From positions 5,332,001 to 5,396,000 of the forward strand of contig CM074762.1 of NCBI GenBank assembly GCA_037355855.1: a stretch of DNA of 64,000 nt, in the 5' to 3' direction. The translations under genes were made by a program, and so were the position numbers. Shown here piece by piece: positions 29,702 through 54,094 of this stretch; positions within the stretch are counted from its first letter, which is position 1; each line of letters begins with the position of its first letter. Source of the DNA: Pseudo-nitzschia pungens (taxonomy: Eukaryota > Bacillariophyta > Bacillariophyceae > Bacillariales > Bacillariaceae). Below the pieces are notes generated by a model, which did not search any database, was not told where the DNA came from, and saw only the letters and a list, made by a program, of their open reading frames with translations.

Positions 29702-29746
29702 GGTGGTGTTGTTATTGTTATTTTCGATCGAAAAAAAGTTTTTTGT

Positions 29747-29783
29747 TGGAGATACAACTCCCCCCTGTTGTTGAGGATAACAA
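29747..29783 (-). promoter_or_regulatory. Leader element shared with Gypsy B
   Basis: TTGTTGGAGATACAACTCCC followed by CCCTGTTGTTGAGG lies 50-85 bases upstream of the transposase ATG. The same sequence, with about two differences, lies 5-40 bases upstream of the gag ATG of Gypsy B (44565-44600), and a decayed version precedes the gag of Gypsy A (about 38868-38910). All are in the same orientation relative to the gene. Meaning unknown; it may be a common start-site or leader element or a recombination trace. Confidence 0.5.
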
Positions 29784-29932
29784 AGGCAAAAAAACAGCGA
29801 GTGAAACTGAAGGTACAAGAAAATTTCGAAGCACTAAAGGGTTGCTGGCGCGCTAAAAATTGGCGATAGAGGCGCGGGTAGGGAATAAAGAGAGTATTTT
29901 TGTTTTTGGAAACAAGATTCCAAATTCCAAAA

Positions 29933-31538: not shown

Positions 31539-34274
31539 TTACCACATGCATCGAGCGCAGTGTTCTTTCAGAGCCGGACCATTCAGCAACTTAGTGAATA
31601 AATCAGCAATGTTGGTTTCACCAGGCTCCTTTGCGATTCGGATTGTTCCAGCAGCAATAGACTCGCGCGCCTTGTGGTAGGCAACACTGTTGTGCTTCTT
31701 GTTGCATGGACTCTCCGGTCTGGTGGTATTTTTGACAACAGACTCATTGTCACAGTACACATTCGTAGGACCTTCAATAGGAACACCCATCATCCGGAGC
31801 TTGTACCTAAGACCCTCAATCAGTTCAATAGCAATCCGAAGCGCGACAATCTCGGATCCAAAGGTGGAGGTCTCTACAGTGGTTTGCCTTTTGCTGAACC
31901 ACAGGATTGGAGCCCTGTTCACAAAGATGATGATTCCGGTATGGGACCTTCTTGTTGCTTTGCATCCGGCATGATCCGCATCGACAAAACAACTCATGAT
32001 AACTGCTTTTCCAAGAGGTTCAGGAGCATCCGGTGGCAATACTTCCTTGGCATCAGGATAAAACTCGCTCCAGTCACAGTTGGGGAATCTGGACTTGTCC
32101 ACTTCAGGACGCGTCTCGTCAAATACTAACTTGGATCGGGCGTGCGCCTTGAGATAGGCAAACATGTGCAATACTTGGTTCAAATGCCCTGTTCTTGCTT
32201 GGGCTAGGTACCTGGACATAAGGGATACAGGCATGACCAAATCAAGCCGACCGAGCTCACATAACCACCTTAAGACTCCAATCAATCCTTGGTAGTAATT
32301 CTGCTTGCTTGGATCTAGTTCGGTGGTAACATCAACTTCTGGACGATAATCGGATGTCAACGGGGTTGATACCTTGTTCGGAAGATACTTGTAACCATAT
32401 TGCTCGGTGCCAAGCTCCTTCTCCACCGCGTCGATAGCTTTCTTAGCATATTTCTCCGAGGACATCGCCCACTTGGGGATTGGATCGCCTTCAACCACAT
32501 GCGAGTGAACATCAGCGCCCAAATACAAGGTTGGAACTTCTATAGTCCCGTCCTTCAGCGTGAAGCGCTGCTCGATACTTTCTAACTGCCGTCGAGGATC
32601 TTCACTGCAACAGATAATATCGTCGACGTATGCAATCAGGTATGCCCAGTACCTAGAACCATCCTTCCTTGTCTCCACTCGCATATGAACATCAGGATCA
32701 GCTTTACAGGGTTGATATCCTAGCGTTCGTAGGTGCTTGGTCAAATAGGATCGGAACGACGCGCCTGCAACAGGAAGGCCATACAGTGCTCGAACGATCT
32801 TACATACCTGACCTACCAAATGCTGGGGGAAACCATCTTCAGCCCGCGCGACTAAATAATACTTCTTTTTGATCGGCGCTGTAAGATAGGCGTTTTGAAT
32901 GTCCGCAGACAGCACGTCCAAATTGTTCAGCGCTGCCAACAGGAAGAAGATACGGACTGAATCCCTGCTTGGTACACTGCTGAAGGTATGTTCCTTAGCT
33001 GTGGCTTGTACCTTGTGGCCATCGGCGACAAGCCGTGCTTTCTTTGTGAGAGACCCCAACTTCACGTCAAAGATCATGTGCGTCGTGATCTTGCTGAATC
33101 CTTCGGCCTTGAGACCTTCGACGGTGTAGCTGGAGTCAAACTCGAACGCCATCTCGTTGTTTCTCATCTCCTTCGCGATCGCCTTCTCCCAATAGTCCGT
33201 TCCAGTCTTTCGGTCGATGGCTAGAGCTTCGGGAATAGAATGAGGCAACTCCACGCCAAACTTGTGCGTCCTATCCCAGTACTTGTTTCGCTTGGTAGCC
33301 TTGAGGATTCGCCTCTTCCTTCGTAGTACATGGTGAATCCACCATCGGAATGCTGGCTGATCCGAGATCTTGGCGGATATGGCATACTCTGCGGTCTGTA
33401 CAGGAAAGGACTCTTTCAGATCGCTCAACTTACACCAGGATTCGGTCCCATCTTTCCAACTGACGAGCAATCGCCATCCCTTCGTTGTAGGCTTGGGGAC
33501 TTTGCGACCGTACTTGTTGGTGATCGTCGCATCTTGCTTCCTAACGGCGGATCCGTCTTTCTCGTGGTCGATAATCTCGTCCAGTAGAGAAAACATTCGT
33601 CCGTCGTCATCGATCTCGCTATGCATGCTCTCAGCAACGATATTGGCGGTGTACTGCTTGACGGAACCATCTGGAAACTGCAGATCATACATTCTGGTAT
33701 CAAGGATAGGGTTATCATTCCTCTTACCAATCGGATTGCCATTAAGATCAGCCGAACGATTCTTCACGACACACCGTAGTCGTTCGTCGCCCTTCTGGAT
33801 CATGACATTATTACCAATATACTCATCATAGTCATCCCCATCAGGTATGAGGTCGCCGATATCTGGAATGGAGGCTTCCGGCTCGGCGAGCTCCCACCTT
33901 TCTTGGTGTCCTTCAAATAACTCCGCAGGGGGATCAGGGTACGTAGCTTGGAACTTTGCGTCGTTATCCTCAACCTTGTCCCCGATCTTGGATTCCACTG
34001 CTTGGTCAAATGAGTCCATATAGCGCTTGACGTCATGGGAACGCCATTCTTCTTCAGTAACAGCACGGACTGTGTTAGTGCTTACCGGCATGGCTGCCTC
34101 GTTCAGGATCCAGTGGCAGTCTCCGCCTCCGAATCGGTCACCGCACGGACCAAGCCACCGTCCCAGCTTCTCGGTCCCATCAGAGAGATCAACCCAATAG
34201 ACGAAATCATACCATTCATGGGCTTGGTACAGAGATATATCAGGCATGTACCCATGTACAATTTCGAACGGCGT
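31539..34274 (-). pseudogene. Copia pol C-terminal part: integrase tail, reverse transcriptase, RNase H
   Basis: An open frame of about 910 codons follows an in-frame TGA at 34277-34275. It begins with the end of the integrase (TPFEIVHGYMPDISLYQ, the 'GxTPFE' box seen in Copia integrases). A long linker follows with a WRLLVSWKDGTESWCKLSDL chromodomain-like stretch. Reverse transcriptase contains ARLVADGHK, VLSADIQNAYLTAPIKKK and AYVDDIICC (about residue 540 from 34247). RNase H contains CFVDADHAGCKATRRSHTG (about 754) and EIVALRIA, and ends with the usual HxxxE box region ADLFTKLLNG. This block is intact by itself, but it has no upstream start of its own; it would be made only as part of the gag-pol polyprotein, now cut by upstream stops. 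Confidence 0.88.
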
Positions 34275-36054: not shown

Positions 36055-36262
36055 GTTCTTGGGGGTCTGTCCTTGGTTCGAGCCGTTGCCCTTCTTCTTG
36101 TTCTTTCTGCGCCCCTTGGGTCCAAAACTGTTCCCTGCGCCTTGGGTCGCATTCGCGTTCGCGGTCGCGGAGGCAGTAGGCGTGGTAGAACTAGTGGACT
36201 GAATAGTTCGAGCTTTCTTCTGCTGGCGGAGGTCATACAACTGCTTTCGTTGTTCCTTGGAG
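36055..36262 (-). pseudogene. Copia gag, C-terminal fragment left of the Gypsy A insertion
   Basis: Minus-strand reading gives QRKQLYDLRQQKKARTIQ, Ser/Thr/Ala-rich residues and a basic GPKGRRKNKKKGNGSNQGQ tail, then TGA (36054-36052). Joining it to 45001 across the nested elements gives an uninterrupted YKTFSKEQRKQLYDLRQ, which proves that it is the missing end of the gag at 45002-46797. Confidence 0.85.
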
Positions 36263-36547
36263 TGTTACACTCTAAGGTAGAAAATACACGATAGGAGTAT
36301 TTTAATGATGTATGATTAATAAATTGTGAATGGTTGAATACTTTACGAGATGGGAATGATTCCTTGAGTATGGGATGAATGATCGGTGAGTCATGGGAAT
36401 CTTTGTTTGAATTGTATGTGTATTCGTGTACGTTGAATATTCAGTATATGTACACGAATATTATATATATTCTTGTATATTGGAGCACATGCGGGATTCA
36501 ATAATCATTTAGAGTCTCTCGTAGGGTACCTACGTCAACATGTAACA
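36263..36547 (-). repeat. LTR of Gypsy A (3' LTR on minus strand)
   Basis: 285 bp, TGTTACACTC...CATGTAACA, an extended inverted TGTTAC/GTAACA at the ends. It matches 38995-39281 except for one CAT. Confidence 0.92.
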
Positions 36548-37395
36548 TAGTTCCCCAATGATTAGGTGAAGTTTGCATGTGGTTCAATACAATAAGGTTC
36601 GGAGTTGAGTAGTATCGATGGAAAGAGATATGCTTGTTCGGAGAACCGGTTGAAGATGATATATGCCATTTGAGATATTTTGAAGATATATGGTAATGTA
36701 GATTGAAGTGGGATTGAAGAAGGTTCTTTTTGATACTCAAAAAATTGAAGATTTGTTTCTTGTTCTTGAGAAGGGTCATAATGACATGCTAAAAATAGCA
36801 AAAAGAGTCGAAGAAAATTCTTTTTCTCCCCCAACTGTGATGTACCTCTCGGGGTAGTGGAGCTGATTTCAGTTGATGTTTGAAATCATCGATTTCGATT
36901 GCTCTTCGGCATAAAAACACCTCCTGTTGTAATAGGAGTGGATGTAGGTAGGTGAAAAGCCGGAGCGTTGGATGTGTTGCTTGCCGTATCTGCGATTGTA
37001 TGTGTTTCAGCAGAGAGGGGACGCATTGTTAGTGACGGTATGGAATTGCTGTTGCGATTATAATTTGATGTGCCGTATACTTTGCCGGTCTTTTATTTTG
37101 GGTGTTATTTGCAGCAGTCGACTGGAGGTTCGGATTTTCGTAACTCCAGAGCACCTCTGTGGGTGTAGAATATAATTTTTGTGGGATTGCTCTCGTTGAT
37201 TATCTAGAGCTCCCTGTGGACTGTTTGTTTGTCCGGAACAAGGTTGGCCTTGTTGTTGCTGCTGTACCCTTTTATCGATATCGATATAATCTAATTCGAT
37301 TCGATTGATTGATTCATGGCGTTAAGCGTCTGTCCCCTTGCAAGTTGATCTGCGTCCAGATCGCTTTGCGTTTGTCTATTTGCCATTGAATCTGT
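36548..37395 (-). other. Remainder of Gypsy A internal region
   Basis: Contains decayed pol N-terminal sequence at about 37130-37395 (minus-strand GYSSNNKANLVPDKQTV, comparable with a region of Gypsy B near 43080-43200). The rest (36548-37130) is non-coding, AT-rich, with no domain recognised. No RT, RNase H or integrase motifs. Confidence 0.6.
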
Positions 37396-37638
37396 TTATT
37401 GTTTTGTTATTTGGTTGATTGTTGTTGCCGTCACTGTGGATCGGACTGAGCGAATTGATTTAGTTCGAACATTTTTTTTGTTTGCAACAGGGCTCATCTC
37501 TGTAGGTTCCTTCCCCTCTGTTCTCGGGAGTTCTCCTCCATGCGTCTTCCCAGTCAGCAGGGCTGAGCTGGCATTCGGCTCCAGGGGAGTCGAAGGCACG
37601 GTGCTGGATACTGTGATCCTTTTTGTTTGTTCGAGTGG
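37396..37638 (-). pseudogene. Gypsy A pol vestige, in frame after gag TAG
   Basis: Directly after TAG at 37641-37639 the same frame continues PLEQTKRITVSSTVPSTPLE and NASSALLTGKTHGGELP, EGKEPTEMSPVAN, equivalent to the start of Gypsy B pol (DASPAQLTGMTQGGDLP, KGKEPTGWSPVE). It stops at 37396. The DNA at about 37494-37570 is notably more conserved with B than the protein requires. Confidence 0.75.
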
Positions 37639-38711
37639 CTATGGTTGCCAAGTGAGGCTGCCGTCGTGCTGGCGTTCAACGCGGCCTCCGTGTTCCATGC
37701 AATAGGATTCTATTGCTTGCCTGATATGGGCTTGGAAGGTTTCATTGGTAGTGGTGGAAGCAGCAGTGCTGCCATTTTCGTTGCTAGGAGCCGTAGCAGT
37801 GCTGTTGTTGCTGCTATTGCTCTTATTTCTTTTGGAATATCTGTTCTTTGGGCATTCGGACCAATCGTGGTCATGTCCTGGAATTCTGCAGGGGTTGTTG
37901 TACTTTCTTTTGCCACCGGATTTTCCTGCTCTTTCTCTTCTTCGGATTCAGCGTCGCTGTCACTGTCCGAATTAGAGCTGTTGCTGTCAATGCTGTCAGC
38001 GTCCGAATCAGAGCTGTCATTTTGATCGGACTCGGTTGATTTCCTTTTTGCTTGACGTTCTAAACAGCTCATGTGATCCACAATAAATCGGATAGTGGTA
38101 TCTTCTTGTATTCCTTGGTGGATTAGACCATAGCTGTTGATCCATTTGCTTGGGAAGCTATGCAGCAGAATGGTCTTAGCTTCTGATGGTGATAGGTCAG
38201 TTCCATGTCCTTGGAGCCTTTTGGTATATTTGAAGAGAATTTGCATTCGGTCTGCATGGTCTTTGCAAGAGACGTTGCTTGGTTTCTTGCATTCGGAGCT
38301 TCGAAGGTAAGTGTGCATGATATCTTTGGCGTCTGTCGCATTGCAGAATTGCTCGATGAAGTCAATGATTGCTTGTTCATATCCCTCGGCGCTTTCTTCA
38401 TATTGGAATTCAGCTGGATCCAGGGGATCCTGTAGCATTTCATTCCACTTGGATTGAGTGTCTGTATTTAGGCATCTGCTGAAGTAAGTAATGTAGTCGG
38501 TGGTTGGTAGTCCTAGGAGCTTTGCGGCGTTCCGGAAGGCTTCTTCAACAAATAGGAATTCCTCTAGTCCTCCTCTGTTGGTGAATAGAGGGATCTTCAT
38601 GCTGTCTTGTTTCCCATTGGGATTTGTAATGGAGAGCTTGGTTCTCTTGGGCTTACTCCTGTTGAAGGAAGGAGTGTAATTGATTGGTGGATCTCTGTAT
38701 AGTCCTGCCAT
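37639..38711 (-). pseudogene. Gypsy A gag with frameshift
   Basis: The frame from ATG 38711 (MAGLYRDPPINYTPSFNRSK) is related throughout to Gypsy B gag: FTNRGGLEEFLFVEEAFRNA, then KTILLHSFPSKW and FIVDHMSCLERQ. In the Ser/Asp-rich stretch after about 37960 the frame is lost: the zinc knuckle CRIPGHDHDWSECPKN (minus strand from 37890) and the end NETFQAHIRQAIESY...GSLTWQP lie in another frame, which reaches TAG at 37641-37639. So one indel lies at roughly 37895-37960. The protein would bind element RNA and form particles in the cytoplasm; the frameshifted version lacks the knuckle. Confidence 0.8.
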
Positions 38712-38979
38712 GTTTCTTGGTAGCGTTCGATCGATTTGGTGTTCGATCGATTCCGTCGTATCGGATATTGCGGTTGTTCCGTTCGATCGATTCGTAGATT
38801 TAGATCGATGTCTTTCGGAGGTTCTTTCGATCGTATGTAGATTTCGATCGACGTTGTTTCTTTTTGTTTGTCGGGGTATTGATGTATCCCTGTTGTTTAG
38901 GATAAAGGTTGTTTTGGATAAAGGTTGTTTTTGGGATGATTCAGTACTGAGTTCCTGTCTGTCTTCTACTTTAAAAGAT

Positions 38980-38996
38980 AAACAGTAATTACTGTG
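38980..38996. promoter_or_regulatory. Palindrome ACAGTAATTACTGT at the primer-binding position of Gypsy A
   Basis: The 14-bp perfect palindrome lies at the 5' LTR/internal border and is also found at the same place in Gypsy B (about 44670-44683), although the LTRs themselves differ. A normal primer-binding site would begin TGG; none is seen here. Confidence 0.6.
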
Positions 38997-39281
38997 TTAC
39001 ACTCTAAGGTAGAAAATACACGATAGGAGTATTTTAATGATGTATGATTAATAAATTGTGAATGGTTGAATACTTTACGAGATGGGAATGATTCCTTGAG
39101 TATGGGATGAATGATCGGTGAGTCATGGGAATCTTTGTTTGAATTGTATGTGTATTCGTGTACGTTGAATATTCAGTATATGTACACGAATATTATATAT
39201 ATTCTTGTATATTGGAGCACATGCGGGATTCAATAATCATCATTTAGAGTCTCTCGTAGGGTACCTACGTCAACATGTAAC
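38995..39281 (-). repeat. LTR of Gypsy A (5' LTR on minus strand), last base displaced to 44996
   Basis: Identical to 36263-36547 except for one extra CAT. The last base of this LTR is separated from the rest by the insertion of Gypsy B; GTAAC (39277-39281) is the part duplicated at 44991-44995. Confidence 0.9.
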
Positions 39282-39590
39282 TGTTACGGTCTAGAGTAGA
39301 AATATCGGAGTGGTATGAAAATTGTGAATGTTTAGATACTTTACGAAATATTGTTACGCGAATTGTAAATGGAAACATATAAAAATTGAGGTCGCGAGCA
39401 TAGCCACATTTTGGCATGCTCTGCCATAAATGTTGATTCATTGTTGATTCCCACGATTAGGCATATATCACCTTCTGGGACTCAACCGAAACGTATTCAT
39501 GATTGGATATATACATATATAATATTCGATTCCCATATGGGATTCGGTTAATTATTCAGTCGTGACTGCTAGCTACACTAGCCCGTCACA
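39282..39590 (-). repeat. LTR of Gypsy B (3' LTR on minus strand)
   Basis: 309 bp, TGTTACGGTC...GCCCGTCACA. Equal to 44682-44990 as far as I can read. The end TGTTAC is shared with element A. Confidence 0.93.
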
Positions 39591-39623
39591 TAGTAGTGCC
39601 TCATGATTGAACGAATCCCATAC

Positions 39624-42600
39624 TTAAGTTGCCCAATGGATTGCTGAGTCACCGGATTCGGAATGGTCCGTTGGGAGCTCTTTGTAAGGGGTTAACTTAT
39701 GAAAGTTAACGGTCTCAGTAACCGTTGGAGTCTTTTGAATCTTAACAGTACCATTATCGTGGACTTGGGCAATAGTGAATGGTCCTGTCTTTCGAGGTTG
39801 TAGTTTGTCTGGATCTGGTTCTTGCATCCATACCTTCTCATTGGGTTGAAAGGTATGTTCCTTGCGCTTGGCATTATCTCTGAGTAGAGCCTTGTTAATG
39901 CCCTGTTGTCGTAGCTGTTGCAGAGCCAATAGGTTGGCAGTTAGTGGTAGGTATATCAGCATATCCCGGTTGAATACAAGGGATCCAGGGGATGCCTGTA
40001 AGGCAGCATTGACAGCGCATCTGGAGGCATGCATACAAGTAGCAAGGGCATTGTCCATGAGCTGACTGGCTCTGGTATTTGCTTGTGGAGGATTAACATG
40101 TACCAGGACACGAAGGATATCAGCAACTGTGTGATGGACACGCTCGCATATGGCGTTCGACTGGGGGTTCTTCACTGTTGTAGGGACTGAGTTAATCCCA
40201 TACTGCTTGAGGGTAGTTTGAAATTCAGCTCCTAGGAACTCACCACCATTGTCATGTACACACCGGATAGGTCTTGGGTATCTTGAAAGCCAGCAGTTCT
40301 TGAATTGATCTGATACATGCTGAGAGGACTTGTCTCTGATTCTGATGATTTCAAGGAGATTAGTGACCGGATCAATACAGGTTAGGGCTTTGAAGTTGTA
40401 GTTCTTGCCCTGAGCTGTAATCTTCCAGGGACCTATTAGATCCACATGTACTTCATAGAATGGGGATAGTGGAGCTTCTTTCGGTGGCAGTTTGCCATAT
40501 TGGGAGTTCTGGTTCTTGTACTTGATGCAATGGTCTGGACATATATAGGACTTGCATAACCTGGTTAGATTGTCAGCATAGAAGCGGGCTGATATAGTCT
40601 GTTGTAATCTGGTGGATCCACAATGACCCAACAGAAGATGATACCACTTGATGGTATCGTTGATTAATGATGCTGGAATATATATTCTCCAGCAGTCCGG
40701 ATTGGCTTGGTTTGCGTAACAAAGTATCTTGTTGCCTTCTAATTCTTGGTAGAAGAAGGCCTTGGATTGAATCTTGAACTTGATGGTTGGGTCCTTCTGC
40801 TGATGGAGGTATATCTTGGTATAGTTAACCGGGCATTCCATGTCTTGATTGTTTGGTAGATTGACGAGACACTCATTGTTCAGCAGACAGGAGTATAGTT
40901 CCTGATCTGCGTCATTGCATAAGTGCTGGAATGGGTTCGGAAATTCTGTTAGAAACAGTTCTTCATCTTGTTCGGGGACTTCAAGTTTCAAGAAATCGAT
41001 AAGAGTGCCCTTACCAAGGGCTTCTTTCTTCCCTACAGTGGGTGGATCCATCCGGGGGAGCCTGGAGAAGGTATCAGCAAGAATATTCTTCTTGCCTTCC
41101 ACATAGGTGAGGTTTACGCCGAATTCTTCTAGGAATAGTCTCCACCGGAGGACGCGTTGGACTGAGAGCGTCCGGAAGGTAAGGTTCTTATGGTCAGTGT
41201 ATACATTGATAACACCACCAAGTAACATTTTTCGGTACTCTTTGCAGCAGAGTACAATCGCTAGGAGTTCTTTCTCCATGGTGGTATAGTTCTTTTGGGC
41301 ATCGGATAGTTTCTTGGACCAATATGCAATGGGCTTGCCATCTTGTATTATGGCAGCACCGAGCTGGAGGTCTGAGGCATCAGTGTACAGTTCAAAGGGC
41401 TTGTTAAGGTCTGGATAGGTGTTCAGCGCATCTGCTGCCACCATTGCTTTCATTTCTTGAAAGGCTTTGTCTTGAGCTGGTCCCCAAGTGAAAGTCGAAG
41501 GAGCCTTCCTCTGCTTGCCTTTGATGGCAGCTGCTTGAGGAGTCTTGGGCGTACCAGTTATATCAAAGAGAGGAGATAGGACATGCGATCTGCGAGGCCA
41601 CATATCTCTGTAGTATCCAACTGCTCCTAGGAAGGACTTGACTTGAGTGATGGTTCGAGGTCGATCCATATGTAAGATAGCTTCGATTTTCTTTCTCCAT
41701 GGCTTAACTGCTGTGGGAGTCATCCAGTAGCCTAGGAAGTCAGTTTCTTGTACAGCCCAATCACACTTGAGTGGGTTGCACTTGAGTCCATTGTCGTTGA
41801 GCCGATGTAGAATCTTGTCAATGGTTTGCATGTGGAGATCAAAGGATCCATTGGTCCAGACGCCTATATCATCAATATAAACAGTGCAGTCGGTATCTTG
41901 TAGGATATCTTCCATTAGTTGCTGGGCAACATCTGGAGAGACTTTGACACCCATTGGTAGTCTTTGGTATTCATAGCAACCATATGGTGTGACTATGGTG
42001 CAGAGTTTCTTGCTTGCATCGTCGAGTTCAAAGCAGTAGTATTGCATGGACAAGTCAATCTTGGTGAAATGAGTATACTTGCCCCTCTTATTCATGATGT
42101 CCTGTATCCTAGGTATGGGATAAGGTCGGCGCTCAAGAAGTTCATTGAGTTCTCTGAAGTCTGATACCCATCTAACTCTGTTGTCTTTCTTTGGAACAAT
42201 AAAGGTGGGGAATGCCCATTCGGCCGGTCCAGTGCAGCGCTTGAGTACTCCATCATTACAGAGATTCTGGAGTTCCCTTTTGAATAGGTCTTCTCTTTTG
42301 TATGCAACTGGATAAGGCTTTTTGTGTATGGGCTTGGATCCGGGCTTCAGTCTTAGAGAGATCTTCTTGTGTGGATATTTTCCTAGTTCGCCGTTGAATA
42401 CATTGGGATACTTGTTTAGTATTGCTTGGAATTGTTGTTGTTCTGCTTTGGACATGTGTGATTGTTGTTGTGCAACTGTGGATGGATCTGTTTCTTGGTA
42501 GGCTCTGTCGAGAATAACTTTGGACTTATATGGATTGGCAAAGGAGAGATCATCAGCAAAGAGTTCGGCGTCTTCTAGTTCTTCCATGAGTGTAGTGTAG

Positions 42601-43520
42601 TCGGACTCATGGTATAGAGATGTATCTTTCATTGGAATAGTCCGATTCATCCATTGGACTGCTCCTTCTTTGAATAGGAGATTGATCTGTGCTAGGTGGA
42701 GGAAGTCTCTGCCTAGTATTAGATCATATCTGCAGTCGGGTGAATGGAAGAGTCTTGCTTGTTGTTTGTCGATCGTGTAGTTGCCAAACTCTTGTAAGTT
42801 GAGGTTCTTCATGATGACGTATTCTGTAGTATCGAAGTTCCCATTTGCTGTAGTAGTTATGACTCGATGCTTGCTTCTGATTGGTAGTGTTCCGAATGGA
42901 AGGGCTCTTTTGTTGATTAGAGTTCCGGATGATCCACTATCTAGTAGTGCGAGTAGTGGTCTTGTTTTCGTTGGTATGCCTTGTATGTACTGTACTTTTG
43001 TTAAAAGAATAGGAGCCACGTTGCTCTTATTCGATGCCTGTTCTACTGGATTTCCAGTAGTCGACAGCAGCTTTAAATAATTTTGCTCCAGCGCACCTCC
43101 TTTGGTGTAGTCTTTGGAGTTTTGGGTGTTGCAATAGAGATTTTTTGCTGTACCCGTAGACCAATTTCTTGCTAGAGACAAGAGTGGTCTATTTATTGCT
43201 GCTGTCTGGTCGATTGAATGAATTGATGATGCGTCTGTACCCTTGGATCGATTCGTTTGTTTCCGATTCGGATCCATGTTCGAATTGCTCTCTTCGGAGA
43301 ATCGAACGTGTTTTGTGGTTGCTGCTGTTGCAGTCTTTGCTAAGCGCTCAACAGGACTCCATCCTGTAGGTTCCTTCCCCTTTTTCTCCGGGAGATCTCC
43401 TCCTTGCGTCATCCCAGTCAGCTGTGCTGGACTGGCATCCAGGGCCTGTGGCGCCGGAGGCAAGGTGATTGCTGGTTTTGGTGGACTCTTGGGTCTCTTG
43501 GTGGAGGATTGGGTTTGCAA
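39624..43520 (-). CDS. Gypsy B pol polyprotein (protease, RT, RNase H, integrase)
   Basis: The frame follows the gag TGA directly (first codon TTG), with no ATG until residue 37, so it is probably made by readthrough as a gag-pol fusion. Protease: LLALLDSGSSGT (about 187-198). RT: VRWVSDFRELNELL, FTKIDLSMQYY and VYIDDIGVW (about 547). RNase H: LYTDASDLQLGAAI (about 714), with YWSKKLSDAQKNY. Integrase: zinc-binding HLLLGH...C..C, then YEVHVDLIGPWK (about 1025), VHDNGGEFLG (about 1090) and NAICERVHH (about 1125), giving the D-D-35-E spacing. All catalytic residues are present and there is no stop. A C-terminal FQPNEKVWMQEPDP (GPY/F-like region) precedes the end at 39624. Acts in the virus-like particle and at integration. 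Confidence 0.93.
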   Translation of the reverse strand: MQTQSSTKRPKSPPKPAITLPPAPQALDASPAQLTGMTQGGDLPEKKGKEPTGWSPVERLAKTATAATTKHVRFSEESNSNMDPNRKQTNRSKGTDASSIHSIDQTAAINRPLLSLARNWSTGTAKNLYCNTQNSKDYTKGGALEQNYLKLLSTTGNPVEQASNKSNVAPILLTKVQYIQGIPTKTRPLLALLDSGSSGTLINKRALPFGTLPIRSKHRVITTTANGNFDTTEYVIMKNLNLQEFGNYTIDKQQARLFHSPDCRYDLILGRDFLHLAQINLLFKEGAVQWMNRTIPMKDTSLYHESDYTTLMEELEDAELFADDLSFANPYKSKVILDRAYQETDPSTVAQQQSHMSKAEQQQFQAILNKYPNVFNGELGKYPHKKISLRLKPGSKPIHKKPYPVAYKREDLFKRELQNLCNDGVLKRCTGPAEWAFPTFIVPKKDNRVRWVSDFRELNELLERRPYPIPRIQDIMNKRGKYTHFTKIDLSMQYYCFELDDASKKLCTIVTPYGCYEYQRLPMGVKVSPDVAQQLMEDILQDTDCTVYIDDIGVWTNGSFDLHMQTIDKILHRLNDNGLKCNPLKCDWAVQETDFLGYWMTPTAVKPWRKKIEAILHMDRPRTITQVKSFLGAVGYYRDMWPRRSHVLSPLFDITGTPKTPQAAAIKGKQRKAPSTFTWGPAQDKAFQEMKAMVAADALNTYPDLNKPFELYTDASDLQLGAAIIQDGKPIAYWSKKLSDAQKNYTTMEKELLAIVLCCKEYRKMLLGGVINVYTDHKNLTFRTLSVQRVLRWRLFLEEFGVNLTYVEGKKNILADTFSRLPRMDPPTVGKKEALGKGTLIDFLKLEVPEQDEELFLTEFPNPFQHLCNDADQELYSCLLNNECLVNLPNNQDMECPVNYTKIYLHQQKDPTIKFKIQSKAFFYQELEGNKILCYANQANPDCWRIYIPASLINDTIKWYHLLLGHCGSTRLQQTISARFYADNLTRLCKSYICPDHCIKYKNQNSQYGKLPPKEAPLSPFYEVHVDLIGPWKITAQGKNYNFKALTCIDPVTNLLEIIRIRDKSSQHVSDQFKNCWLSRYPRPIRCVHDNGGEFLGAEFQTTLKQYGINSVPTTVKNPQSNAICERVHHTVADILRVLVHVNPPQANTRASQLMDNALATCMHASRCAVNAALQASPGSLVFNRDMLIYLPLTANLLALQQLRQQGINKALLRDNAKRKEHTFQPNEKVWMQEPDPDKLQPRKTGPFTIAQVHDNGTVKIQKTPTVTETVNFHKLTPYKELPTDHSESGDSAIHWAT

Positions 43521-44561
43521 TCATGGGAGCCATATAAGCTCACCGTCTATGCTCCTTTCTGTTCGGCCTCCAAAGTCCGAGTGATATGAGTCCATCGCGG
43601 CCTTCATGTGGGCTTGGAAAGACTCGTTGCTGCCTGAAAGGTCATGAGTTTGAGTGTGGAAAGTTTCAGTGTTGGGGTTGGAGCCATGGGTCTTGTTGTT
43701 ACCGGGCCCCTTGTAGTTCTTGGAGTATTTGTTCTTAGGACATTCGGACCAATCGTGGTTGTGTCCTTGGATCCGACAGGGATTGGATTTCTTTTTGCTC
43801 TTTGGATTATTCTTCTGGTTGCCAGAGCGCTTCCTGTTATTGGTGTTAGAACTATTAGAATTATTGGAACGTCTTCCGTTATTCTTGTTCTTTTGTTTGC
43901 TGAGTCGGTCGAGACTGCTCATGTGGTCGACGATGAACTGAGTAGTGGTGTGCTGAGTGACCCCTTGGTGGATGCGGACATAGTCTTCGATCCAGGAGTT
44001 TGGGTAGCTGTGTAGGAGAATGGTGACTTGCTGGAGATGGTCCAGGTTGGTTACATATCCATGTAATTTTGCTGTATATTTCATGAGAGTGATGAGTCGA
44101 TCGTTGTGGTCTTTGCAAGTGGATTCTACTTTCTTCTTGCATGCCGGGCTTCGTAGGTATATGTGCATGAGGTCTCTGGCATCTTCTGCATTGCAGTAGT
44201 ATTTGATAAAGGCTGCAAAAGCTGAATTGAATCCTTGTCTCGTAAGTGGATACAGTCTTTGTCCGTTCGGTCGGGTGCTCCGTGCGAGGGCTCTCCATTC
44301 GGTTTGGGCTTTGACACATAAGCAGCGTCCGAAGTAGCGGATAAGCGCTGAGTCTTGTACACCTAGATCTTCTGCTGCGTTCAGGAAGGCCTCCTCGGTG
44401 TGAAGCAACTCTTCTAGACCTCCTTTGTCTGTGAAGAGGGGGATTTTGACGCTGTCGGAATGGTCGGCATTGTCGTAGACCGAGAGCGTGATTAGTTTCG
44501 GCTTGGAGCTGTCGAAGGAGCTCTTGTAGGAGACAGGTGGTTCTCTGTAGATGCCTGCCAT
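43521..44561 (-). CDS. Gypsy B gag
   Basis: Begins ATG 44561 (caacATGGCAGGC), 346 residues. It has a capsid-like helical region (residues about 40-230: KGGLEELLHTEEAFLNAAED, ARDLMHIYLRSPACKKK, TILLHSYPNSWIEDYV, FIVDHMSSLDRLSK). A basic Asn/Lys-rich stretch precedes a zinc knuckle of unusual form, CRIQGHNHDWSEC (C-X4-H-X-H-X4-C). It ends SIDGELIWLP and TGA (43523-43521). Pol follows in the same frame, so the particle protein and the gag-pol fusion would come from one RNA with the stop partly read through. The homologous gag of element A ends the same way with TAG. Confidence 0.9.
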   Translation of the reverse strand: MAGIYREPPVSYKSSFDSSKPKLITLSVYDNADHSDSVKIPLFTDKGGLEELLHTEEAFLNAAEDLGVQDSALIRYFGRCLCVKAQTEWRALARSTRPNGQRLYPLTRQGFNSAFAAFIKYYCNAEDARDLMHIYLRSPACKKKVESTCKDHNDRLITLMKYTAKLHGYVTNLDHLQQVTILLHSYPNSWIEDYVRIHQGVTQHTTTQFIVDHMSSLDRLSKQKNKNNGRRSNNSNSSNTNNRKRSGNQKNNPKSKKKSNPCRIQGHNHDWSECPKNKYSKNYKGPGNNKTHGSNPNTETFHTQTHDLSGSNESFQAHMKAAMDSYHSDFGGRTERSIDGELIWLP

Positions 44562-44681
44562 GTTGCTTGTTGGAGATACAACGTCCCCCTGTTGTTGAGG
44601 TTAAGGGAGGTTTGGTCGATTCTTTTGAATTCAGTACTGATTTCTACTGTTTCTACTGTAAAGCACAAACAGTAATTACTG
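44562..44681 (-). promoter_or_regulatory. Gypsy B 5' leader
   Basis: On the minus strand the leader starts at the LTR with the palindrome ACAGTAATTACTGT, contains TTTCTACTGTAAAG-type words also seen in A, and ends with the CAACAACAGGGGGACGTTGT / ATCTCCAACAA element shared with the Harbinger-like gene at 29747-29783, then the gag ATG. No TGG-type primer-binding site is visible. Confidence 0.6.
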
Positions 44682-44990
44682 TGTTACGGTCTAGAGTAGA
44701 AATATCGGAGTGGTATGAAAATTGTGAATGTTTAGATACTTTACGAAATATTGTTACGCGAATTGTAAATGGAAACATATAAAAATTGAGGTCGCGAGCA
44801 TAGCCACATTTTGGCATGCTCTGCCATAAATGTTGATTCATTGTTGATTCCCACGATTAGGCATATATCACCTTCTGGGACTCAACCGAAACGTATTCAT
44901 GATTGGATATATACATATATAATATTCGATTCCCATATGGGATTCGGTTAATTATTCAGTCGTGACTGCTAGCTACACTAGCCCGTCACA
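44682..44990 (-). repeat. LTR of Gypsy B (5' LTR on minus strand)
   Basis: 309 bp, equal to 39282-39590 by eye. Read on the minus strand it begins TGTGACGGGC and ends CCGTAACA. Confidence 0.93.
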
Positions 44991-45001
44991 GTAACATGGA
45001 G

Positions 45002-46797
45002 AAGGTCTTGTAGACTTCATAGGGATAAGGTTTGTCCTCAATCTTGCCGCCGTACGATCCGCCCTTGTTGCTTCCTTGGTTGCCACCACCACCGTGGTGT
45101 ACAGAGGAGATGCTTCGCGCTCGCTTGGTTGACACCGCACCCATCTTTCGTATGCCAAGGCACCTCTTGAAGTACGAGACGCACTCGTTGAAGTCCTTCG
45201 TGTACTTGTCGGTTTCAAAGATTTGGATCTTGGGGTTCTCAAACCGATCATCTTGGATGCTGTGGATGAAGCGCATGGTGAAGTCCTCTTCGTCGGGCAA
45301 CTTGTCGTGGTTGGATAGCGTAGTCTGGAAATTCAACCAAGTTGTGCAGTGCTTCTCAAAGTCGTAGGTGCGGGAATCACCTGTATAGCGGGAGGTGTAC
45401 ATACCGGTACGGACCTTGTCAAGGATAGCCGCGACGTTGGTTGCGGAGAAGGCATTCTCGTAGAGAGTTAGGAAAGCCGCTCGGGCGTTCCCAGTTGGAT
45501 TCTTCGCGTCTTTGTACCTACGGGTGTAGGCCCATGCGGGACCATCACGGACTGCGTTGCAGAGCAACACCCAAACGTCGTGGTTGTCAGTGACAAATTG
45601 CGGGCCTTCAAGCGTGGCGCATCAAACATTATAATCCATCCAGTTGGAAAATGTCCCGTCCTTCCCAACAGTGGCGGACCTTTCTGCTGCAGTCACTGTC
45701 TCTTGCTCCCTCGGACGAATGACGTATGATAGGGGGAACCCTTGTTCATTGTACTGAAAGCGGAGGAACTGGCGGAAGCGTTCTTCCCACTGACGGAAGT
45801 TATCAAGGTTGATGAGCTTCGGCGGAGTAGTGGACGCTGAGACGACCTCCTTGTCAGCAGTTTGCTTTTCATGTAGGCGTTGGCGGGTTCGGTCGGCTGC
45901 GAGGGGATCACTAAGCCAAGTATGGGCAGTAGGCTTGATACCAATGAGAGGTTGGTAGCGGATCCACTCCGAAAGAAGCTGAAAGGACTGTCTGAAGGAT
46001 AGTCCGATGAATACTCGTTCATGGTAGGGGCACATCGGATGACGACTCCCATTGAAGTCACGAAGATACTTGGGGAGTTCCTTGGCAGATAGCTGTTGGA
46101 TTGCCTGGATGCTGCTCAGGCCGTTCCGGAATAACTCATCCGCCGTATCACTGTTGCTGAAACCAGAGAGGATCTTGTGGAGGTCTAATTCCTTTGAGCT
46201 GAGCTTTGCTCCATTCTTGTATCCAGAGATTCCACCATTAGCTTGGGCTGTGGCATGGGCTTGGAGGATTTCAGGACTAGCTCCTGTAGGGGCGGCGACA
46301 GGAGCAGGGGCAGGAGCACGAGCGGCGGCAGCAGCAGCAGCAGCAGCTTCAGCAGCCACTCGGGCGGCGTTTTGAGCAGCGGTGGCTTCAGCAGCCACTC
46401 GGGCGGCGGTTTCAGCAGCCGCTCGGGCTGCGTTCTCATTGCGCATTGCTCTGAGTTCTTGAACAGCAGCAAGTAGGATCATCTCAGATCGGGGTTGGAT
46501 GTCAAGGTTTGGTTCTTGTTGGACTCTGGAGGCTCCAAACGCAGCAGGGACAGCAGGAGCAATAGGAGGGACTCCAGGCGCTCCGACAGGGGGCAGCGCT
46601 CCAACAGGGGGCATCGCTCCAACAGGGGGAACGCCGGCTCCAGCGGCGACTCCAGGCGGAGGAGCGTCGACTCCAGGGACGGCGCCTCCATCTCCAGGAG
46701 CACCTCCAGCAGCGCCGGCTCCAGGGGCAGGGGCATCTCCAGCAGCGCCGGCTCCGGCAGCGGCTGCAGCGATTTGTCTTCTAGTTTGCTTGGCCAT
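45002..46797 (-). pseudogene. Copia gag, N-terminal part, with in-frame TGA and a nested insertion
   Basis: ATG 46797 (accATGGCC). The first 190 residues are Ala/Gly/Pro-rich (GVPPVGAMPPVGALPPVGAP; AARVAAEA repeats). A gag-type domain follows: GYKNGAKLSSKELDLHKILS, YHERVFIGLSFRQSFQLLS, KLINLDNFRQWEERFRQFLR. A TGA at 45624-45622 (after MDYNV) interrupts the frame, which then goes on with CATLEGPQFVTDNHDVWVLL and NAVRDGPAWAYTRRYKDAKN to the insertion site of Gypsy A at 45001. CGA to TGA is the simplest explanation. The remaining 70 codons are at 36055-36262. Intact, it would form the particle shell. Confidence 0.82.
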
Positions 46798-47684
46798 GGT
46801 TGACTTGACTTGCTCTGAGTACCTAACTTGCTTTAGTTTCTAAACCAAATTCTTTTGTGGTGGGAGCTGTCTCCAATCGATGGTCCGCGTCGATTGTTCC
46901 GTATCGACAATTCCGAAAGAAAAAAAGGTATCACGTCAGCGTTTTCGTGTCAACTGTTTCGTGCCGACGTCTAAAAAGGTATTCACATCGATTGTTCCGA
47001 GTCGATGGTTGGTTAAAAGGGTATCCACATCGATGGTTCCGATTCGATGGTTGGTTACGACCAAAAGAGAAGAATTCTATCGGTCTTTCTGCTCTGGACC
47101 AATCGATTTGATTCTGAGATATGACAGATCTCAGGGTTCTTGGCTTGTCTGATTCCAAATTCCCTTGGCTAAAATCAAAATCGATGGTATAGCAGGTTCG
47201 AGGTTGTCTGCGCCTCGATGTTTCGGATGGGACTGACGTCATGTCCTTGGTCTGCTGGACACTGTCTTCACTGGAAAGTTCTTTTCTTTTTCCAGTGTGG
47301 TTCCATCCGTTGCAAGCAAGCGTCCCCCTTGAATCCTGTAAAATAACAGGGAATCATGGACGCTGCTTTCTCCACGTCCTGCTCCTTCCCCTACCGGATT
47401 GAGCCTCCATGGTGCCACCATGATGCTCATCTACTGTATCAACAACTGCGTATCAACAGGCCCCAGAGGTGGATGTGTGGGCTCCGGTCGGTCGCGTGTC
47501 TGGGGAAGGGCTCCCCATTAACATCAGGGATCTCGCGATGTCAGCTGCTGGTCCAGTTTCAGCTGAGGTTTTACATCCAAGTGTAGGCATGGATGCCAGT
47601 GGTGATCAGCCAGCTGGGTTTCATCACGCGCTCTAGCCGGCGTCCCGGTTCGTAGAAGTGGGTCGAGCGGTGGGTCTGATAAAC
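46798..47684 (-). other. Copia 5' untranslated leader
   Basis: Between LTR and gag. It contains repeated TCGATGGTTCCG/TCGATTGTTCCG words at 46875-47050. Minus-strand sequence next to the LTR reads GTTTATCAGACCC, a candidate primer-binding site resembling TATCAGA in Copia elements. No coding frame is convincing. Confidence 0.55.
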
Positions 47685-49811: not shown

Positions 49812-51281
49812 TTATTTCGTTGCAGTGGTATAAATATTGTTTGCTTTTCTTCGCCGGCCATTCTTGTCCTTCAGGTTGAATCCGATTCGTTCCAGCAGGT
49901 CCTTGCGGTGCCTCGAGATCCCCCAGTGTCGGTATAGCATTCGTTGCCGGCCGACCCACTCAGCGAGCTCGGGGTAGTCCTTGTCGCCCAGTGGAACATT
50001 GGTGGACCCGTTGTGTGTTATCTTGTACTCGATGAGTTTTTTGTACATTTCGGACCAGACCCCCTGGTTGGGCCGGACGATAAAGACAAAACCAATGTCT
50101 TCCAGCATCTTCGTTCGGTCCGGCCGCTTACACCTCCGGCGCTGCTGACGGACCCATTCCCCGAGCTGACGATCTTTGTACCGGACCGGCACCAGTGTGT
50201 TTCCGTGGAGCTTCTTGTAGACCTTGAGTTTCTCGAACATCATCAACCACTTGGCGTCATTTTTCGTGCTCTTGATTGCACCGGACGATGACGATGACGA
50301 TCGGGTCTTCTTTGGCTTGTTCTTGCCCTTCCTTACTTTATTCATCTGCAGCAGTTTTTGGTTCTCCTGATGAATCAGGCTGAGGAGGAACTGTTTTTCC
50401 ATCAGATGCTTCTGCAACGCTTGATGTTCCAATCGGAGTCTCATCGAGGCGAACATGCATTTTTGGTGCTCTAGGGACGCCATTATATGCTGGTGCTGCT
50501 GGGCTTCCATCATCAGCTTCTTCTCGAGACTCCCGTGCAAATCCAGGTTTGTTGGCACGCTTCTTGAAGAAACAGCCTTGAATTTCTTCATCGGTGGCAA
50601 CAGAGCCGCGTCGAATGAGGAGGGTGTCTTTCTGGGCTGAGAGAGCCGGGTGGTAGTGTTGACGGTAGAAACACAAGGGGCAAGGCTTTCGTTTGGTCTC
50701 GCTCTCTTCTTGGGATGTATGGAGGTTGAAGCATCTTCAGAGGAAGGATAAGAAGAACCCACCACGTGGAGTTCAGAGGATGTGGCGCAGGACGGGACGA
50801 AGTCAATGGTCTCCATCGAGTCGATGGTTTGGACCGAAATAACATCGTCATCGTCCTCGTCATCATCGAGTTCCAGGTTGTGAATGTCGAGATTTCCGTT
50901 TCGCAAAAGCGCAATGACATCGTCGTCTTCTCTATCGTCTTCTTCTTCTTCTTCGCCGTCGTAGCTGGAGTCAGTCTCAGAGACGGAGGATGCCGACGAC
51001 GAGGGCGGAACCACGGCGGGAGAATCATCGGAATCGCGCATGGGGAGAGATATGATGTTGGGGGTGGGGAATCCCATGGAGGTGATCATAGCCGGGATGG
51101 CCGGACCCGTATTCGAATTGGAATTGGAATTCGGTGTCATGGCGTTGCTTACGACTGCATCTGGATGGGCCGACATTACTTGCTCGTAGAGAGAAGCGTA
51201 GGGGTGACTTTCCCACCGGCCTTCGGAGACTTCCGCCTCTTGCGGTGGGTTCTTGGGTGGTTTGAGAAGCAGAGACGCCAT
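49812..51281 (-). CDS. Protein with two helicase-associated (HA) domains
   Basis: A 489-residue ORF starts at 51281 (gcgtctctgc region, ATGGCGTCTCTGCTTCTC). The first 330 residues are low-complexity: Ser/Asp/Glu-rich stretches (DGEEEEEDDREDDDVIALLR), a basic patch (HPKKRARP), and a Gln/His-rich helix (KLMMEAQQHQHIMASLEHQK). Residues about 343-400 (WLMMFEKLKVYKKLHGNTLV, then QLGEWVRQQRRRCKRPDR) and 406-470 (VWSEMYKKLIEYKITHNGST, then ELAEWVGRQRMLYRHWGI) are two helicase-associated domains, three-helix modules thought to bind nucleic acid; diatom genomes encode many such proteins without a helicase. Basic stretches suggest nuclear localisation. Exact function unknown. It is flanked by long intergenic DNA, without intron signs. 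Confidence 0.85.
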   Translation of the reverse strand: MASLLLKPPKNPPQEAEVSEGRWESHPYASLYEQVMSAHPDAVVSNAMTPNSNSNSNTGPAIPAMITSMGFPTPNIISLPMRDSDDSPAVVPPSSSASSVSETDSSYDGEEEEEDDREDDDVIALLRNGNLDIHNLELDDDEDDDDVISVQTIDSMETIDFVPSCATSSELHVVGSSYPSSEDASTSIHPKKRARPNESLAPCVSTVNTTTRLSQPRKTPSSFDAALLPPMKKFKAVSSRSVPTNLDLHGSLEKKLMMEAQQHQHIMASLEHQKCMFASMRLRLEHQALQKHLMEKQFLLSLIHQENQKLLQMNKVRKGKNKPKKTRSSSSSSGAIKSTKNDAKWLMMFEKLKVYKKLHGNTLVPVRYKDRQLGEWVRQQRRRCKRPDRTKMLEDIGFVFIVRPNQGVWSEMYKKLIEYKITHNGSTNVPLGDKDYPELAEWVGRQRMLYRHWGISRHRKDLLERIGFNLKDKNGRRRKANNIYTTATK

Positions 51282-54094
51282 GATTTCGTTCTTAGCTTGT
51301 GTGACTGTGTCTTGGAATTGGAATTCGTCGTGGCCGATTTGAAATTTATGAGAGGTACAAACGGTTTACTGTCGGTGGGGTTGGATGATGAAACCAGTGG
51401 CGTGTTGGTTGTTCCAGGAGTAAGGATTAGAAGATGAGTGTAAAGGTTGCGCTTTCTGGATTAACGAGAAGTTGTAGAATTTTTTGTTTGGTTCTGGTAT
51501 CGTTTTGAATTGTAAGTATTCTTCGGTTTTGGTCTCCACAGAAATTCACTGCACAATAAATTCTTTTTTTTTTACAATTAAAAGCACTTCTTGTTCCAGT
51601 AAGTTAACTTACCGTACGGAATACTGTTTTGTTCTCACAAAAGTTTGGAAGAGTAAGTTAGCGTATTATTTTTTTTCCTGATACTGTATGAAAAAAATAC
51701 CTTACCGGTACGACTTAAAATTTCTGCTTCTTGAGAGCATTAACTTACTTCAACACGTTCGACGTTAAAAAAAAATAATACGAAGTACCTGTAGTGTAGT
51801 AATTAGTATCAATTATTGCAACTTTGCCTTAGAAGGTAGTATTATGACACGAGGCTTACGAGTAAAACGTAATTAGCGTCAGAAAATCAGAAGAACCAGA
51901 TGCGACGCAATTGCTCGTCTGGTATCATGGTGTCATAGGGGAGAAGCAAATTATTGAAACATCACATAAACATACCTTTAGTTTTGGTTTTCAATGGGGA
52001 AGTTCAAGAACTGACGAACAAGGTCATGAGGGCGCAATTTTTTTTAATATGAAGTGCGTAGTGGGTTACTACAATCAATTAGGATGTGTTGGGTGCTCTA
52101 TGTGCTAATTCCAAAAGTAGGGGAATCGTTCGTATACTTCAACATTCTCAGAGTTTGTTAACAAATCCCATGAAATCGCAAATACTACGAGTAGTGAATT
52201 ACATAAATTGGTTTCATAAGTAATCAATGATCTTCTTCTTCCGTCCCGCAGCTTTGATGACCAAAACACTATGAATAGACACTTCCAGTTCATGACCTTC
52301 TCTCTGGGACAATCCGAGACGATATTATTTACTACTTAGTAACGATCTCTGCAGTTTCATTTTTTTAATTAAGAAAAGGTTCGATCCCTTATTGAGAATA
52401 CCATGTATTTGAACAGAACTGCTGCTCATTGTTCTCTTCTGGCACCGGGAGGTTTTGAAAAAAGGGAACGCATGTCACAAAAATAATACGAAGTAACCTT
52501 ACTTCTCATTAGCATTGTAAGGGAATCATAGTCAGCAACATTTCCGGGACGTGTTGCAAAAACATACCGTAACTACTGATGCATAAGTGAAATCGGTGAT
52601 ACGGCACACAACGACATAAGATGAGCGAATTTGTAGTCCCAATGTTCTAACTTCAGTAAACTTCACGAGAATGAGAACAAAATTTTCTGGTCTCGCAATC
52701 CGTACAAGGTATCGTCCATATTCCTCGTACTTTGGATACTTTTTCTTTTTTAAAAACTACTACGTACTACGTAGTAGTTATGAATGCCTCTGTTTGCACT
52801 TATGGCAATGCACGTACCGGTAAATCAATGTGACACCGGTAGAAATTGCTTATCATTGCCCTATCGTTTCTTGATGAAATACTTCAATTCATCGCCATGT
52901 CCCAGTGAGTCTGCGGGAAATTATTTTCCTACAGTTGGTCCTCCAAAAAACATGTGTTGTTCCCGTAGAAGCAAAAAACCCTCCCACAGAGGCAGAAAAC
53001 GCTCCTGCAGAAGCAAAAAACACTCCCGCAGCTGAGGGAAATGAAAAAAATTCCCGCAGCCCTCAAAAACAAAATTGAATTTTATTTTTTGTTACTTCGT
53101 ATTTCATTTCATTCTCAATTTTAAAATTAAAAGAATGTCGTCTCTATTGAATGAAAAGATCCTCCTACGGTACTACTTCACTGGCTCAGGAACCGCTACC
53201 AAAAATGCTTAGGACTCGTAATCTTGTCACGATAAGGAAATAGTTCAAAGGAACATTCCAGAGGGCACGCTTCTTGCACAATAATACCGACAGACTTCAA
53301 GTAGTTTTGGGGTCATCCCCCTCCCTTGTCTTGAACACCTCAACTGAGAGACGATCATCACCCGCTACCAGCACGTCGCCGGGACACCGATCATGATTTC
53401 TTTAATTAATAGTAATCGTATCTTCGTGGAACGGACTCATATCCGGTAAATTAGGATGTGGTTCGTTCTCCAAAAATAGAAATTTTTCAATCCCAGAGGT
53501 TCGTATTTTCTTCGAACGGACTCATAGGACGTGGTTCGTTCTCCGAAAAAAAGAATTTTTTCAATCTCACGGACAGTTCTCTATGGGTCTGTCGAATGGA
53601 AAATCGAAATGAATCAACGATTTCGAATTTTATTTAAACATGCAAACACGTGTCTATTGAAGTTGCAATTAGTGGAGTTGTAAATGATTATCCCTAACTT
53701 TGATCACATTTACAAACGTAACTTTAACTTCCTTAAGAAGCTGAAGAGTGTGAGAAACGGGATTTTGGTAAAAACTGAAAAATACTGTTTTTAGTGCGTA
53801 GAGCCAGTACAATTTCAACGCTTAAAACCGAGGACATTCGCGGTTATGAAAATAGACATTTTTACTGTTTTTGATGAGAAATAGCAATATTAATTGATCG
53901 GTTTTTGAATCAATCGGCATATTATATTTTCGTCTAAGTTGTAGTATTACTGGTTTTATGAGAAATTGGCATAATATATTTTCGTCGGAGTTGTGATGCT
54001 GGTTTTTAATGACAATTGTCTAATTTCGTACCTCTAGTGGTTTTGATAAGTATACCGTATGTGTGGTTGTGATACCTAAAGGTGCAATTGTACG
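51282..54094. other. Long intergenic region without supported gene
   Basis: AT-rich with scattered CTTACCGTAAC-like words. Small local repeats: three units of GAAGCAAAAAAC(N)CTCCC(N)CAG at 52968-53035, and an approximately 75-bp duplication containing CGGACTCATA...GTGGTTCGTTCTCC (53434-53500 and 53514-53570). The short frames present lack protein character. The first 200 bp likely include the promoter of the HA-domain gene. Confidence 0.5.

What the first reader, a model, noticed from the sequence alone, without database searches (positions are those of the whole stretch)
43521..43523. Gag and pol in one frame separated by a stop in two diverged Gypsy elements (TGA in B, TAG in A)
Seen in sequence: in element B the gag ends ...LIWLP-TGA and pol goes on in the same frame without a nearby ATG; in A the homologous gag ends ...LTWQP-TAG (37641-37639) and the same frame continues into pol. 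The stop position is conserved but the codon is not, and B has identical LTRs and no other defect, so the stop is not decay. Known: gammaretroviruses make gag-pol by stop readthrough; most Gypsy elements use a frameshift or a single ORF. Inference: these elements use programmed termination suppression.
Basis: partly seen in the sequence, partly recalled or inferred. Interest (0 to 1): 0.86.

Follow-up and report, generated by a model that had tools for sequence, protein, structure and literature searches.

The report
Leaky stop codon in diatom retrotransposons
A family of mobile elements in what looks like a diatom genome keeps one particular stop codon (UGA), with small RNA hairpins behind it, between its two main genes, most likely so that a few ribosomes read through and make the enzymes in small amounts, a trick already known from mouse leukaemia virus and some yeast elements.

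Summary
Element B: confirmed. Its gag ends in TGA (43523-43521, minus strand) and pol follows in the same frame. Of 104 distinct junctions read from pol-type (..WLP) relatives in the same genome, 104 have TGA. The distance from the TGA to the next conserved stretch varies, but is a multiple of three in 101 of 103 copies. Two hairpins with compensatory changes follow the stop; in B's clade the first takes in the GA of the TGA. Best reading: programmed UGA readthrough helped by RNA structure. Comparative evidence only; no protein or reporter data.

Element A: not a second example. It belongs to a compact gag-only family: TAG in 18 of 18 junctions read, spacing without regard to frame, further in-frame stops in 11 of 18. 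It serves better as a natural control.

Also found: about 150 nt behind the stop are nearly frozen at third codon positions, and part of this block survives in A, so it is probably also a cis-acting RNA signal.

Gag-pol readthrough at an in-frame TGA is known in fission-yeast Ty3/gypsy elements: a new variant of a known kind.

The parts
43521..43523 (-). TGA stop codon between gag and pol of element B
   Evidence: TGA in 104 of 104 pol-type junctions read
43507..43522 (-). Hairpin H1, begins with the GA of the TGA; 5 pairs in B (its sixth, closing pair is C-C in B)
43484..43495 (-). Hairpin H2; 3 of 4 pairs kept in B (C-A at the closing pair)
43344..43493 (-). Block with very low third-position diversity (+30 to +179 from the T of TGA); overlaps H2 and the start of pol
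   Evidence: part of it repeated in A at 37485-37603
43410..43412 (-). In-frame ATG, pol codon 37 (possible alternative start)
43521..44561 (-). gag of B from its likely ATG to the TGA (346 aa), with a C-x4-H-x-H-x4-C knuckle
   Evidence: no Pfam match, called gag by position, knuckle and homologues
39624..43520 (-). pol frame of B, 1298 codons, TAA
42702..42962 (-). Protease-like stretch
   Evidence: PF13650/PF00077
41724..42197 (-). Reverse transcriptase
   Evidence: PF00078
41121..41411 (-). RNase H
   Evidence: PF17917
40164..40679 (-). Integrase zinc-binding part and core
   Evidence: PF17921; PF00665 at E 1.1e-6 but under its curated cut-off
39282..39590 (-). LTR of B (3' LTR of the minus-strand element)
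44682..44990 (-). LTR of B (5' LTR), identical to the other
37639..37641 (-). TAG at the end of the gag tail of element A (comparison, not the same mechanism)
36262..39240 (-). Element A, gag-only, LTRs 36262-36508 and 38994-39240 identical over 247 nt

Best explanation
[quoted passage not shown] Shown by sequence comparison: the TGA is invariant in the copies read, the frame is kept across it, and two hairpins with compensatory changes stand directly behind it. Inferred: that ribosomes insert a near-cognate amino acid at the UGA, that the hairpins raise the frequency, and that this sets the Gag to Gag-Pol ratio. The nearly frozen block further on probably has a second role in the RNA such as packaging, since part of it persists in the gag-only A family.
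For: TGA in 104 of 104 pol-type junctions read. Distance TGA to anchor takes 39, 42, 45, 48, 51 or 54 nt in 101 of 103 copies, none of the 103 with a further in-frame stop before the anchor; on a tree from gag DNA alone the length changed at least 18 times. Control: in the gag-only family 10 different distances in 18 copies, 12 of 18 not multiples of three, 11 of 18 with extra in-frame stops. Stems: H1 region 57 of 69 distinct sequences with 5 or more pairs against 7.6 in shuffles, H2 region 65 of 69 with 4 or more against 19.5. Covariation score, paired cells and cells with double changes exceed 500 of 500 shuffles in both clades, and fall when partners are slid. One H1 pair is U-A 39, G-C 9, A-U 2 of 52. 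No fused gag-pol frame among scored matches: longest open frame 510 codons at gag, 1,330 at pol.
Against: No protein, ribosome-profiling, RNA or reporter data. In Tca2, which has the same layout, the junction alone did not cause readthrough in S. cerevisiae (PMC2194720, abstract). The +4 base is T 64, G 17, A 15, C 8 of 104, not the known leaky C. In B's clade H1 would have to be open when the UGA is in the A site, and H2 is then far from the ribosome. In B itself each hairpin has lost a pair, and 12 of 69 sequences lack a 5-pair H1 stem. Two covariation measures are not beyond shuffles: pairs changed on both sides (51 and 122 of 500 as high) and further pair types (126 and 119 of 500); the independent-pairs test had 5 pairs, 4 agreeing, not significant. 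Recombination between gag and pol could inflate the 18 length changes. The pol stretch of codons about 60-140 shows dN/dS near 1 (1.24 and 0.98).
Confidence: 0.8

Rival explanations
1. Pol is started on its own, by reinitiation at the ATG 37 codons into pol or on a separate spliced or internally started RNA; the TGA is an ordinary stop and the hairpins serve something else.
For: A Met stands at that column in 62 of 68 clean copies. A promoter inside the gag-pol junction was found in Tca2 (PMC2194720, abstract). Of GT dinucleotides in B within 600 nt upstream, 2 are conserved in 47 of 47 clean copies, and 18 AG downstream, giving 8 frame-compatible pairs, so splicing is not excluded.
Against: It does not explain why the frame is kept between the TGA and codon 37 (101 of 103), nor why only TGA occurs. 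6 of 68 clean copies have Thr there. The two conserved GTs (ATC-GTCGAC, TTG-GTCCGA) do not resemble the usual donor (consensus recalled).
Confidence: 0.12
2. The UGA is read as selenocysteine.
For: Only TGA occurs (104 of 104); the genome has 6 places over the tRNA-Sec cut-off (anticodons not read; the same search rings loosely in 14 of 14 control genomes, over the cut-off in 5).
Against: No SECIS family match at E up to 5 in 36200-45100 and none in a simple scan of B; both have limited sensitivity. A tandem-hairpin signal at the stop is not needed for this.
Confidence: 0.03
3. The ribosome hops over the stop and hairpin H1 (translational bypassing) and lands in frame further on.
For: A short hairpin that takes in the stop recalls phage T4 gene 60 (recalled). 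The codon before the stop is always Pro (CCA 74, CCC 28, CCT 2 of 104) and Pro codons follow.
Against: Indels in the stretch that would be skipped are nearly all multiples of three, which hopping to a fixed landing site does not ask for.
Confidence: 0.03
4. The stop is decay, or is removed by an intron or by RNA editing at the stop.
For: A GGTGAGC stretch 20 nt before the TGA resembles a splice donor in B.
Against: TGA in 104 of 104. The GT of that stretch is lost by synonymous GGA, GGC or GGG changes in L011, L017, L018, L028, L038 and L044.
Confidence: 0.02

Closest known systems
Tj1, Tosmo1-3 and Tcry1 of fission yeasts (Ty3/gypsy; PMC4600332, PMC10085805; passages seen)
   Same: Ty3/gypsy elements with gag and pol in one frame parted by TGA; removal of the stop made Tj1 inactive.
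   Different: There the context is GAA-TGA-CT; here a Pro codon precedes, 0 of 104 have CTA or CTG behind the stop and 7 of 104 have CT; here hairpins with compensatory changes.
Tca2 of Candida albicans (Ty1/copia; PMC2194720, abstract)
   Same: gag-UGA-pol in one frame with a possible RNA structure behind the stop.
   Different: Copia-type; a potential pseudoknot; the junction alone was not enough in S. cerevisiae.
Murine leukaemia virus gag readthrough signal (PMC4178896, passages)
   Same: gag and pol in one frame, stop readthrough, RNA structure some 8 nt behind the stop (here 5-8 nt in the second clade).
   Different: UAG and a pseudoknot; here UGA and two simple hairpins, the first taking in the stop in B's clade.
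Tombusvirid recoding element, e.g. turnip crinkle virus (PMC6277124, passages)
   Same: The structure directly behind the stop takes the stop's last base into its terminal pair.
   Different: UAG, extended pseudoknotted hairpin with a long-distance partner at the 3' end; here two bases of UGA are paired and no long-distance partner was looked for.
Sirevirus gag-pol junction (review PMC5009743, passages)
   Same: A stem with covarying bases at the end of gag.
   Different: Copia-type plant elements with pol in another frame or separate; mechanism open.
GyDi, Ty3/gypsy elements of diatoms (PMC2806351, passages)
   Same: Ty3/gypsy elements of diatoms; that paper remarks that most of its LTR elements show one or no stop codon or frameshift between gag and pol.
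   Different: No recoding signal described in the passages seen; not compared in sequence here.

Membership tests
Ty3/gypsy LTR retrotransposon | LTRs with target duplication | tested here: met
   309-nt identical LTRs, GTAAC on both sides
Ty3/gypsy LTR retrotransposon | Order protease, RT, RNase H, integrase | tested here: met
   (the integrase core match lies under its curated cut-off)
Ty3/gypsy LTR retrotransposon | RT groups with gypsy elements in a tree | not tested
   No tree of RT was built
GyDi (diatom gypsy group) | RT clusters with the published GyDi elements | not tested
   Published sequences were not compared
Programmed gag-pol stop readthrough | gag and pol in one frame with a single conserved stop between | tested here: met
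Programmed gag-pol stop readthrough | Stimulatory RNA structure behind the stop | tested here: met
   Structure conserved; that it stimulates is not shown
Programmed gag-pol stop readthrough | Gag-Pol fusion protein made | not testable with these tools
   Needs protein data or a reporter
MLV-type signal | Pseudoknot about 8 nt behind the stop | tested here: inconclusive
   Hairpins found; the folding methods used do not see pseudoknots
Tj1-type context | GAA-TGA-CT | tested here: not met
   Pro codon before the stop in 104 of 104, CT behind it in 7 of 104
Selenocysteine decoding | SECIS element in the RNA | tested here: not met
   No match at E up to 5, none in a simple scan; limited sensitivity

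The most novel reading that the evidence does not exclude
The elements carry a compact RNA module at the end of gag in which the stop codon is itself part of a hairpin, followed by a second hairpin and a nearly frozen block of about 150 nt that serves another step such as packaging. Folding of the module could then decide between translating and packaging the RNA, while the gag-only satellite family has kept part of the block but swapped to TAG and lost the readthrough part.
Probability: 0.25. Interest if true: 0.7.

Novelty: new variant of a known kind. Interest (0 to 1): 0.5.

Why it matters
If true, gag-pol readthrough reaches a lineage far from animals and fungi, with dozens of natural variants of one signal in a single genome and a gag-only sister family as a built-in negative control. 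That lets one ask which RNA features a leaky stop needs, and offers a candidate readthrough signal for work in diatoms. The mechanism as such is known, so the surprise is moderate.

Tried and rejected
Rejected: A as a second readthrough case. A splice donor at GGTGAGC. TGA read as sense in the host: B's gag and pol frames hold no other TGA and a DDE transposase ORF in the window ends in TGA; this is weak evidence on the code. A stop-start overlap ATGA: the overlapping ATG is in another frame, closes after 58 codons in B, and is lost in the 30 of 104 copies whose preceding codon is not CCA. Led nowhere: tRNA scan of the window (0 genes); Rfam scan of 36200-45100 (3 matches far under their cut-offs); Pfam on gag (none). 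Protein constraint between the stop and codon 37 could not be judged, since third positions hardly vary there. Structure prediction of gag did not run. LTR dating of other copies was not done.

Not read or dropped: of 116 scored gag matches (of 920 candidates) 98 reach the gag end; 78 of these junctions were read (76 TGA, 2 TAG of A-type), 20 were not. Of 40 A-type places, 17 were read, 23 not. From I chose 20 junctions by hand. Clean-frame subsets: 68 of 81 pol heads, 61 distinct; 47 of 70 copies. L030 and L101 were left out. In one search two copies with a shifted hairpin (L085, L087) are counted at the standard position.

Full report
THE ELEMENT. B's gag has relatives named by their sources as Pseudo-nitzschia, and B's pol relatives named Nitzschia inconspicua and Amphora, so the host is most likely a diatom (inference). 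B has identical 309-nt LTRs with a GTAAC duplication, a gag frame, TGA, and a 1298-codon pol frame with protease, RT, RNase H and integrase matches in gypsy order. Gag itself has no Pfam match; its place, a C-x4-H-x-H-x4-C knuckle and its homologues make it gag.

IS THE STOP KEPT. I read 104 distinct junctions of B's type: the window, 39 places from a DNA search (81.8-100% identical to B), 41 further ones from a gag search, 3 diverged ones and 20 from a pol search. All 104 have TGA. For 81 of them the place was found by aligning gag without demanding a stop. Among scored matches the longest open frame is 510 codons at gag and 1,330 at pol, so no fused copy was seen. The searches score only the best candidates (116 of 920, 131 of 1112 and 131 of 982), and 20 of 98 eligible gag junctions were not read, so rare exceptions may exist.

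IS THE FRAME KEPT ACROSS IT. From TGA to the conserved KPAIT anchor the distance is 39, 42, 45, 48, 51 or 54 nt in 101 of 103 copies; the exceptions are L101 (28 nt) and L143 (50 nt), and L030 has no anchor. None of the 103 has a further in-frame stop before the anchor. On a tree of 81 rows from gag DNA alone the length changed at least 18 times; recombination between gag and pol could inflate this. In the gag-only A type the matching distance takes 10 values in 18 copies, 6 of 18 being multiples of three, and 11 of 18 have extra in-frame stops.

RNA STRUCTURE. H1 is a stem of 5-6 pairs, H2 one of 4-6. In B's clade H1 begins with the GA of the TGA; in a second clade it begins 5 to 8 nt behind the stop (12 of 18 with 8, 5 with 5, 1 with 7). 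Stems are commoner than in dinucleotide shuffles: H1 region 57 of 69 against 7.6, H2 region 65 of 69 against 19.5. In 52 distinct sequences of B's clade 95.7% of cells pair, one H1 pair being U-A 39, G-C 9, A-U 2, and an H2 pair A-U 44, G-C 4, G-U 4; no shuffle of 500 reaches the covariation score, and sliding the partners lowers it. The second clade behaves alike. Against this: two of the five measures are not beyond shuffles in either clade, related sequences inflate such counts, and the independent-pairs test had only 5 pairs, 4 agreeing. B itself lacks the last pair of each hairpin.

A NEARLY FROZEN BLOCK. Third-position diversity among 70 copies is 0.32-0.52 in gag, 0.28 at 0-29 from the stop, 0.03-0.11 at +30 to +179, 0.09-0.28 up to +509, and 0.26-0.42 beyond. 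In the same block all three codon positions are equally low, so it is held as nucleotides and says nothing on coding. Part of it is found in A (77% over 119 nt), whose family keeps no frame there. It folds into a branched consensus (59 sequences) but varies too little for a covariation test. Recent exchange between copies could also lower diversity, but the dip is local. A packaging or dimerisation role is my guess.

ELEMENT A. Its ..LTWQP tail is out of frame with its main gag ORF; behind the TAG the frame closes after 80 codons. Of 40 A-type junctions 13 have A's 3' region on the same strand within 6 kb, 12 of them at 0.58-0.65 kb, so the A type is a compact family without room for pol. TAG stands in 18 of 18 A-type junctions read. 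Loss of pol thus goes with TAG and with loss of the kept frame.

OTHER RELATIVES. Of 14 gag homologues from other sources, 4 end ..WQP and 2 ..WLP, at the same place; P0004, P0006 and P0013 run on, and the rest are cut or different. P0006 and P0013 run into KRPRYRGPPITMPPAPP, which resembles B's post-stop KRPKSPPKPAITLPPAP: a hint that this stretch is protein in a relative. Of the 120 pol relatives listed (191 found), 21 are 1350 residues or longer and 18 of these carry a knuckle-like motif, so related elements exist with gag and pol in one frame without a stop.

MECHANISM. Best reading: UGA readthrough helped by structure. The +4 base is mostly T (64 of 104; C in 8). A structure taking in the last base of the stop has a precedent in tombusvirids (PMC6277124, passages), one about 8 nt away in MLV (PMC4178896, passages). 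That H1 in B's clade must be open while the UGA is decoded is an unsolved point; it could act on approach, or after termination against RNA decay, which readthrough elements are reported to resist.

NOVELTY. In-frame TGA between gag and pol is published for fission-yeast gypsy elements (PMC4600332, PMC10085805; passages) and Tca2 (PMC2194720, abstract). For diatoms I saw one general remark (PMC2806351, passages) and nothing on stop codons in PMC7017206 (term search). The listings of searches show no title or abstract start describing this signal; that library lacks most subscription papers.

Noticed in passing
44986-46839: Two minus-strand frames in one reading frame parted by a TGA (45624-45622), a gag-like stretch of another element that B has inserted next to or into. 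Whether this TGA is decay or a second recoding stop was not tested.
   Followed up: no
43344-43493: Nearly frozen nucleotide block behind the gag stop, partly shared with gag-only element A.
   Followed up: partly
36262-39240: Element A is one of a compact gag-only family with many copies, probably mobilised by proteins of others.
   Followed up: partly
43524-44561: Gag knuckle of the form C-x4-H-x-H-x4-C in place of CCHC, kept in diatom homologues.
   Followed up: partly
G000:C10:2371879-2372342: Four tRNA-Sec-like matches in tandem at 126-base steps, two more elsewhere, all at 77.6 bits; anticodons not read.
   Followed up: no
31539-34274 and 28724-29833 and 49812-51365: A copia-like pol frame (by eye), a DDE_Tnp_4 transposase frame and a helicase-associated-domain gene in the same window.
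   Followed up: no
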